Shown here: one piece after another, positions 44,786-45,868 of the stretch
Position numbering within the stretch: the stretch's first letter is position 1
How the letters are laid out: every line of letters begins with the position of its first letter
Assembly: GCF_009601705.1 (NCBI RefSeq)
Contig: NZ_CP045687.1
Location: 1,710,001-1,774,000, forward strand
DNA length: 64,000 nt
From: Sulfolobus sp. E5-1-F
Lineage (GTDB): Archaea; Thermoproteota; Thermoprotei_A; Sulfolobales; Sulfolobaceae
Direction of reading: 5' to 3'
Position numbers and translations under genes: made by a program
Notes under the pieces: model-generated
Seen by the model: the letters and a program-made list of their open reading frames with translations, nothing else
What the model was told of the DNA's origin: nothing
Databases searched by the model: none

Positions 44786-45868
44786 TCACCTAGACAAACT
44801 AATACCATAACTCACTATACCTAAATCATCTGAGGAAATTACGAGATAATTATCAACATTAGCCTTTTTGCCTTTAAACGAACCAATTAACTGCATATAA
44901 GCCTCAGCTAGTTGATATAAGGCAGTAGCTCCACCAGCATGTCCTCTGGCTTTCAGTCCTCCACCTAAATTGACATTGATACTATCTAAATTATATAAGG
45001 ATTTGCCATTTTCAAATATTCCCGATTCCTCTAACATTAATGCTGCCATAATACTATAGGAGTCATGAATTTCAATTCCAGTTTTCTCAGTGAATTTCAT
45101 ACCTAACTTATTCCTCAACATTTTTACAGAAGGCAAAGATGGAGAAAACTCATACCTAGCTTGTGCTGAAACAATATTATTAATCTTCACTGAGGACTCA
45201 GTCTTGTTGCTTGAAAGTAAGAGTATTGCAGCCCCATCTGCTCTAGCACCGACGTCAAATAATCTTATAGGATCTGAGATTATCTGTGAATTAATTACAG
45301 TATTTAAGTCAACTTGAAATCTTAAATATGCGAAAGGATTTTCTATAGCATTCTTGTGCATTTTGATAGCCCAATTTGCAAAGTAATTTCTATCGACATT
45401 ATACTTTTTCATATATTGTCTCATTAACAAGGCAGCTATCGAATGAGAAGAAATACCATTATAATACATATAATCATCTAAATTGGTAGCTATTGCGTCA
45501 TTAAGATATTTAGAAGGATAATCTGATTGCTTTTCAACTCCCACTATTAGAATTGAGTTTACCATACCGCTCTTGATCATCGAATAAGCTGCAAGTAATG
45601 CAGCACCTCCACTGGCGTCAGCGTTGTCTACCTTAATAGCGGGTACGTTAGGTTTTCCTATTTTTTCCGCAATCTTTGGTGCAATTAAAGATGAGTTATT
45701 CAATTTTTGAGAATAGGCATTCGCAACTATAATTAAATCAACATTATTTAAATCATATTCTCCTTCGAAGTTCTTATAGGCCTCAACTACTAAATCATAT
45801 ATATCATACTCATAGTATCTATCAATTGGTATCATTGATGAAGAATTAATGTAAACTTCTGTCATCAT
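44786..45868 (-). CDS. Thiolase-like protein without the catalytic cysteine
   Basis: 360 residues with the SCP2-type thiolase fold: [15 protein letters not shown] in the nucleophile loop, [13 protein letters not shown], and [20 protein letters not shown]. The nucleophile Cys of the usual N-A-C-A-S-G loop is replaced by Asp (residue 84), and I find no cysteine anywhere in the protein. The His of the GH(P/A)xGAT motif is kept. The gene lies between HMG-CoA synthase and DUF35, overlapping the former by 4 bases, where archaea encode the acetoacetyl-CoA thiolase of the channelling complex. It may therefore serve as a scaffold, with thiolase chemistry done by another enzyme. The DNA codon (GAC) is clear. 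Confidence 0.9.

What the first reader, a model, noticed from the sequence alone, without database searches (positions are those of the whole stretch)
44786..45868. Cysteine-free thiolase in the mevalonate operon
The thiolase nucleophile loop reads NADASGG instead of NACASGG, and I see no cysteine in all 360 residues. In other archaea the thiolase of this operon makes acetoacetyl-CoA and hands it to HMG-CoA synthase via DUF35. Here the partners are intact (synthase Cys near 112, DUF35 zinc ribbon complete), so the protein may be a structural scaffold or use Asp in a new way. Acetoacetyl-CoA would come from another thiolase.
Basis: partly seen in the sequence, partly recalled or inferred. Interest (0 to 1): 0.65.

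Follow-up and report, generated by a model that had tools for sequence, protein, structure and literature searches.

The report
Nucleophile-less thiolase in archaeal mevalonate operon
The gene annotated as the first enzyme of membrane-lipid synthesis in Sulfolobus-type archaea has lost the cysteine the reaction needs, and the same loss recurs across archaea with an acidic residue in its place, so it is probably a non-catalytic partner that holds the next enzyme's complex together.

Summary
The 360-residue thiolase at 44786-45868 (-) has Asp84 (GAC) where thiolases have their cysteine nucleophile. It is no artefact: all 31 Sulfolobaceae genomes examined have Asp (one Glu) there, beside intact HMG-CoA synthase and DUF35 genes.

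The pattern is wider than Sulfolobales. Of 146 synthase-linked thiolases, 56 have Cys, 79 Asp or Glu, 11 something else. The tree needs about eight Cys/non-Cys changes. All 56 Cys proteins keep both catalytic histidines; 57 of the 90 others lost one or both. Non-Cys proteins evolve 1.5-2.7 times as fast as the synthase (Cys proteins 0.9-1.1) but stay under purifying selection (dN/dS 0.04-0.10). The model matches the thiolase of the Methanothermococcus thiolase/synthase complex at 1.5 Å. Other thiolase genes occur in 68 of 69 non-Cys genomes but only 5 of 23 Cys genomes; this genome has two complete class-I thiolases.

Best explanation: a pseudothiolase, a non-catalytic scaffold subunit of the synthase complex, with acetoacetyl-CoA made elsewhere. 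This is inferred; no activity or complex was measured. One family (f5) has no detected Cys thiolase, so unconventional chemistry is not excluded there.

The parts
44786..45868 (-). Nucleophile-less thiolase-fold protein (pseudothiolase), 360 aa, 39.7 kDa, no Cys
45617..45619 (-). Asp84 codon (GAC) at the thiolase nucleophile position (loop N82-A-D-A-S-G-G)
45065..45067 (-). His268 of the HDSY motif (HDAF in active homologs), kept
44939..44941 (-). His310 (GHA; GHP in active homologs); Tyr in most Sulfolobaceae
44819..44836 (-). C-terminal catalytic-loop region, S-S-D-D-L-G instead of the N-x-G-G-x-G type motif of Cys homologs
45865..46917 (-). HMG-CoA synthase, catalytic Glu80, Cys112, His237 intact; its stop overlaps the thiolase start (ATGA)
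44378..44779 (-). DUF35 zinc-ribbon/OB-fold scaffold protein, four zinc Cys intact
43152..44381 (-). HMG-CoA reductase, last mevalonate gene of the cluster, overlaps the DUF35 end (ATGA)

Best explanation
The protein is a pseudothiolase: a thiolase-fold subunit that has lost the acyl-accepting cysteine and is kept as a structural, probably CoA-site-shaping, partner of DUF35 and HMG-CoA synthase. [quoted passage not shown] A live thiolase held beside the synthase could also split acetoacetyl-CoA, so losing the nucleophile may even help. Asp/Glu at the helix N-terminus probably replaces the buried thiolate charge or caps the helix. Shown here: residue loss, its distribution, the evolutionary pattern, gene linkage, fold. 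Inferred: lack of activity, complex formation, the role of the acid.
For: Asp/Glu at the nucleophile in 31/31 Sulfolobaceae. Among HMGS-linked thiolases 56 Cys, 42 Asp, 37 Glu, 11 other; both catalytic His kept in 56/56 Cys rows but one or both lost in 57 of 90 non-Cys rows. About 8 Cys/non-Cys changes on the tree, 7 forced by well-supported branches. Thiolase/HMGS distance ratio 1.5-2.65 in non-Cys groups vs 0.87-1.10 in Cys groups; the DUF35/HMGS ratio shows no such split. dN/dS 0.04-0.10. Gene order HMGS-thiolase-DUF35-HMGR kept throughout Sulfolobaceae. Fold intact, pLDDT 95; best structural match is the thiolase of the archaeal thiolase/DUF35/HMGS complex, 6et9/6esq, Z 53, 1.5 A over 357 residues. 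Another thiolase gene in 68/69 non-Cys but 5/23 Cys genomes; class-I thiolases sampled have Cys, NEAF, GHP and CHG motifs. SSO0534, taken as the S. solfataricus ortholog from its locus number next to SHMT SSO0530, is a protein detected by mass spectrometry (PMC6105217).
Against: The acid is recurrent, which pure decay would not predict: Asp is two and Glu three base changes from Cys, so there is selection on that residue. Most Glu rows (26 of 37) and this protein itself keep both catalytic His. Family f5 (4 genomes, 91-99% complete) has a non-Cys operon thiolase yet no Cys thiolase was found, only a Ser-type ST0096-like one. On phylogenetically independent pairs the link with other thiolases is in the right direction (about 4 to 1) but not significant. 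No complex or activity was measured.
Confidence: 0.66

Rival explanations
1. The acid is catalytic: Asp/Glu with the two His acts as base or forms a transient acyl-carboxylate, so the protein makes acetoacetyl-CoA, or runs another acyl-CoA reaction (decarboxylation, aldol type), without cysteine.
For: Acid favoured in independent lineages although mutationally distant from Cys; both His kept in 26 of 37 Glu rows and in this protein; no Cys thiolase found in f5; Cys-less thiolase relatives with retro-aldolase activity exist (Sal, which has Gly there, and Ltp2, PMC12329534).
Against: Other residues (Gly, Gln, Ser, Thr, Leu, His) also occur in linked homologs; His310 is Tyr in 27 of 31 Sulfolobaceae; several Sulfolobaceae have a one-residue deletion in the loop; evolution is about twice as fast as in Cys relatives.
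Confidence: 0.15
2. Regulatory subunit: the dead site binds acetyl-CoA or acetoacetyl-CoA without reacting and gates HMG-CoA synthase according to CoA-ester levels.
For: Segments such as LKARG, MHxNA..P and HD stay conserved in both classes; the known complex has a shared CoA site (PMC12329534, reporting Vogeli 2018).
Against: No direct evidence of ligand binding or allostery; conservation is also explained by scaffold packing.
Confidence: 0.14
3. Sequencing error, pseudogene or local decay in this genome only.
For: None found.
Against: Same substitution in 31 genomes of the family and many others; open frames; dN/dS 0.04-0.10.
Confidence: 0.01

Closest known systems
[quoted passage not shown]
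   Same: Same gene linkage and partners; fold superposes at 1.5 A over 357 residues, the top structural hit
   Different: 27% identity; nucleophile Cys replaced by Asp, C-terminal motif lost, about 25 residues shorter, in loops
ST0096 thiolase-like protein of Sulfolobus tokodaii (PDB 4YZO)
   Same: Cys-less thiolase fold in Sulfolobales; a paralog, L005, lies in this genome
   Different: Ser at the nucleophile column (NTSGSGG), HDMAT motif, not in the mevalonate operon; separate branch of the tree
Sal and Ltp2 steroid aldolases with DUF35 partners (PDB 9MYR, 6OK1)
   Same: Thiolase fold with DUF35 partner; Sal has Gly in place of the nucleophilic Cys
   Different: They use a Y-D-H/C-F/Y motif for retro-aldol chemistry; here the motif is HDSY and the partner is HMG-CoA synthase
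Pyrococcus furiosus thiolase PFC_04095 (PDB 7YVY)
   Same: Best sequence match in the PDB, same subfamily
   Different: Keeps Cys, HDAF and GHP motifs

Membership tests
Archaeal acetoacetyl-CoA thiolase (NCBIfam NF053570) | thiolase fold and family profile match | tested here: met
   Pfam Thiolase_N 54 bits; AF2 model to 6et9_C Z 53
Archaeal acetoacetyl-CoA thiolase (NCBIfam NF053570) | score above the curated equivalog cut-off | tested here: not met
   148.7 bits against a cut-off of 600
Archaeal acetoacetyl-CoA thiolase (NCBIfam NF053570) | cysteine nucleophile | tested here: not met
   Asp84 here; Asp/Glu in all Sulfolobaceae
Archaeal acetoacetyl-CoA thiolase (NCBIfam NF053570) | catalytic His pair (HDxF and GHP) | tested here: met
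   His268 and His310 present in this protein, His310 lost in most relatives
Archaeal acetoacetyl-CoA thiolase (NCBIfam NF053570) | thiolytic or condensing activity | not testable with these tools
   needs purified protein
Thiolase/DUF35/HMGS complex subunit | co-located HMGS and DUF35 genes | tested here: met
   ATGA overlap with HMGS; order kept in Sulfolobaceae
Thiolase/DUF35/HMGS complex subunit | physical complex | not testable with these tools
   needs co-purification or a structure
Pseudoenzyme | conserved loss of catalytic residues with the protein maintained | tested here: met
Pseudoenzyme | no catalytic activity | not testable with these tools
   needs assay
Sal/Ltp2 DUF35-dependent aldolase | Y-D-H/C-F/Y catalytic motif | tested here: not met
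   HDSY in its place; motif definition from PMC12329534
Sal/Ltp2 DUF35-dependent aldolase | thiolase fold with DUF35 partner gene | tested here: met

The most novel reading that the evidence does not exclude
Acid-for-cysteine thiolases form a functional class in which a carboxylate with the two His performs acyl-CoA chemistry inside the HMG-CoA synthase complex, so that some archaea (no Cys thiolase was found in family f5) start isoprenoid synthesis without a cysteine thiolase.
Probability: 0.12. Interest if true: 0.85.

Novelty: new variant of a known kind. Interest (0 to 1): 0.6.

Why it matters
The gene is named acetoacetyl-CoA thiolase in Sulfolobus work (SSO0534 in PMC6105217), yet by sequence it cannot run the thiolase mechanism. 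If right, the first step of archaeal membrane-lipid synthesis is misassigned in Sulfolobaceae, Acidilobaceae, Thermoproteaceae and others. The recurrent Cys-to-acid change in a channelling complex gives natural comparisons between live and dead versions, so it can be tested whether channelling of acetoacetyl-CoA or merely scaffolding keeps the complex together.

Tried and rejected
Sequencing error or pseudogene: rejected by 31 genomes and dN/dS. Total absence of Cys as meaningful: rejected, P about 0.16. Nucleophile loss tied simply to the 4-hydroxybutyrate branch: HpaB_N (a proxy for 4-hydroxybutyryl-CoA dehydratase, which also catches flavin monooxygenases) occurs in every Sulfolobaceae genome tested but is missing or only a weak below-cut-off hit in many acid-type Acidilobaceae, so another thiolase is the better correlate. 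A single-protein scan of genome contigs found nothing; an HMGS alignment worked. The Vogeli 2018 complex paper is not held; I could not check whether it already notes the missing Cys, and searches of held papers found no such note. No atomic coordinates were available, so interface and CoA-site distances were not measured. A 144-residue Thiolase_N hit in G102 (L256) was not resolved.

Full report
Observation. The window lies in a complete 2.54 Mb Sulfolobaceae genome. On the minus strand it carries HMG-CoA synthase (45865-46917), the thiolase homolog (44786-45868), DUF35 (44378-44779) and HMG-CoA reductase (43152-44381), with ATGA overlaps at the first and last junctions. The thiolase homolog is 360 aa with no Cys; position 84, where thiolases carry the nucleophile, is Asp (codon GAC, 45619-45617). 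Two base changes separate GAC from a Cys codon. Lack of any Cys is not unusual for this low-Cys proteome (P about 0.16); the lost nucleophile is. HMG-CoA synthase Glu80, Cys112 and His237 are invariant in a 16-sequence alignment, and the four zinc Cys of DUF35 are present.

Distribution. All 31 Sulfolobaceae genomes have an ortholog directly after HMG-CoA synthase, with Asp (30) or Glu (1) at this column; several also have a one-residue deletion in the loop. I then fetched HMGS loci across the order, the phylum and all archaea. In 146 HMGS-linked thiolases the column is Cys 56, Asp 42, Glu 37, other 11 (Gly 7; Gln, Ser, Thr, Leu one each); a named Pyrolobus locus, left out of that count as a near-duplicate, has His. 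Acid versions are found in Sulfolobaceae, Acidilobaceae, the Zestosphaera family, further Sulfolobales families, Thermoproteaceae, Caldivirga relatives, an Odinarchaeia MAG, an Archaeoglobales MAG and a Chloroflexi MAG. Names of families come from named loci on the same contigs or are read from related MAG titles; the genome handles themselves are unnamed. Cys versions are found in Pyrodictiaceae, Thermococcus, methanogens, DPANN, most Asgard and several Thermoproteota families. In families f4, f7 and f10 the Cys thiolase is not beside HMGS.

Evolution. A tree built without the nucleophile loop needs 8 Cys/non-Cys changes, at least 7 forced by well-supported branches; the acid label needs 9, at least 5 forced. 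These are parsimony counts on a quick tree with long branches and do not give direction. Where Cys is kept, both catalytic His are kept (56/56). Where it is lost, one or both His are lost in 57 of 90 rows. Protein divergence of the thiolase relative to HMGS is 0.87-1.10 in Cys groups and 1.5-2.65 in non-Cys groups, while the DUF35/HMGS ratio shows no such split. dN/dS between close relatives is 0.04-0.10. This is the pattern expected of a protein relieved of catalysis but still needed. Asp and Glu are two and three base changes from Cys codons; Gly, one change away, is seen in several lineages, so Cys-Gly-Asp-Glu is a plausible path (inference). Recurrence of the acid suggests that the charge itself is selected.

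Structure. AlphaFold2 gives mean pLDDT 95.1. The best match is the thiolase of the Methanothermococcus thiolase/DUF35/HMGS complex (6et9_C: Z 53.2, 1.5 A over 357 residues, 27% identity), ahead of SCP2 thiolases (Z about 50) and the Sal/Ltp2 aldolases (Z about 40). In the known complex DUF35 links thiolase and synthase, which share a CoA site at their interface (PMC12329534, PMC6996347).

Source of acetoacetyl-CoA. This genome has two class-I thiolases with complete active-site motifs (L001, L002) and two Cys-bearing SCP2-type thiolases beside DUF35 genes (L003, L004). Strong class-I hits occur in every Sulfolobaceae genome tested, in f2 and f6, in all but one tested Acidilobaceae-type (f3) genome, and in the non-Cys Pyrolobus-like genome G168. 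They are missing from most genomes that keep Cys in the operon family, and sampled class-I proteins are intact. Outside the order, non-Cys Thermoproteales (f21, f29), f49, L166 and L163 have class-I thiolases; f12, f17, f18, f23, f32, f52 and f55 keep Cys and show only that one thiolase. Overall 68 of 69 non-Cys genomes have another thiolase gene against 5 of 23 Cys genomes; in this count any other thiolase, Cys-bearing or not, was accepted. Corrected for relatedness only six pairs are available, about four in favour and one against, which cannot be significant. [quoted passage not shown]

Exceptions. Family f5 (four genomes, 91-99% complete) has a Gly, Gln or Glu operon thiolase and, as far as Thiolase_N and Thiolase_C searches show, no Cys thiolase, only a Ser-type relative of ST0096 (one short hit in G102 not resolved). 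The Archaeoglobales MAG L111 shows only the Asp thiolase, but its completeness is unknown. For these the supply of acetoacetyl-CoA is open.

Conclusion. Most likely this is a pseudothiolase, kept as the thiolase-fold partner of DUF35 and HMG-CoA synthase, with acetoacetyl-CoA made elsewhere. Shown: residue loss, spread, rate shift, purifying selection, gene linkage, fold. Inferred: inactivity, complex formation, role of the acid. Whether the founding paper on the complex (Vogeli 2018) already mentions the missing Cys could not be checked.

Noticed in passing
L005 (G000:C1 about 118.2-121.5 kb); L246-L249: A second Cys-free thiolase, Ser at the nucleophile (NTSGSGG), relative of the solved ST0096 (PDB 4YZO); in family f5 it is the only other thiolase found besides the nucleophile-less operon one.
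   Followed up: partly
L006 (G000:C1 about 2.305-2.308 Mb): Thiolase-like protein with DYGGASAL instead of a Cys loop, overlapping a DUF35 gene: another apparent nucleophile-less thiolase/DUF35 pair.
   Followed up: no
L050-L057 (family f4): HMG-CoA synthase directly followed by DUF35 with no thiolase between; where checked, a Cys thiolase sits elsewhere in the genome.
   Followed up: partly
G237:C1:491202-492239, G285:C6:21547-22587, G244:C194:3114-4154: In three genomes of family f17 the HMG-CoA synthase frame continues through a single TAG into a 744-762 aa open frame, so synthase and the next gene appear to be in frame, separated by one TAG; possible readthrough fusion.
   Followed up: no
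L190-L196: The Zestosphaera family carries both an acid thiolase in the HMGS operon and a separate Cys thiolase with its own DUF35: apparent duplication and division of roles.
   Followed up: yes
47024-47428 (-) and 41807-43108 (-): By sequence, an S-adenosylmethionine decarboxylase-like gene upstream and a serine hydroxymethyltransferase gene downstream flank the mevalonate cluster.
   Followed up: no
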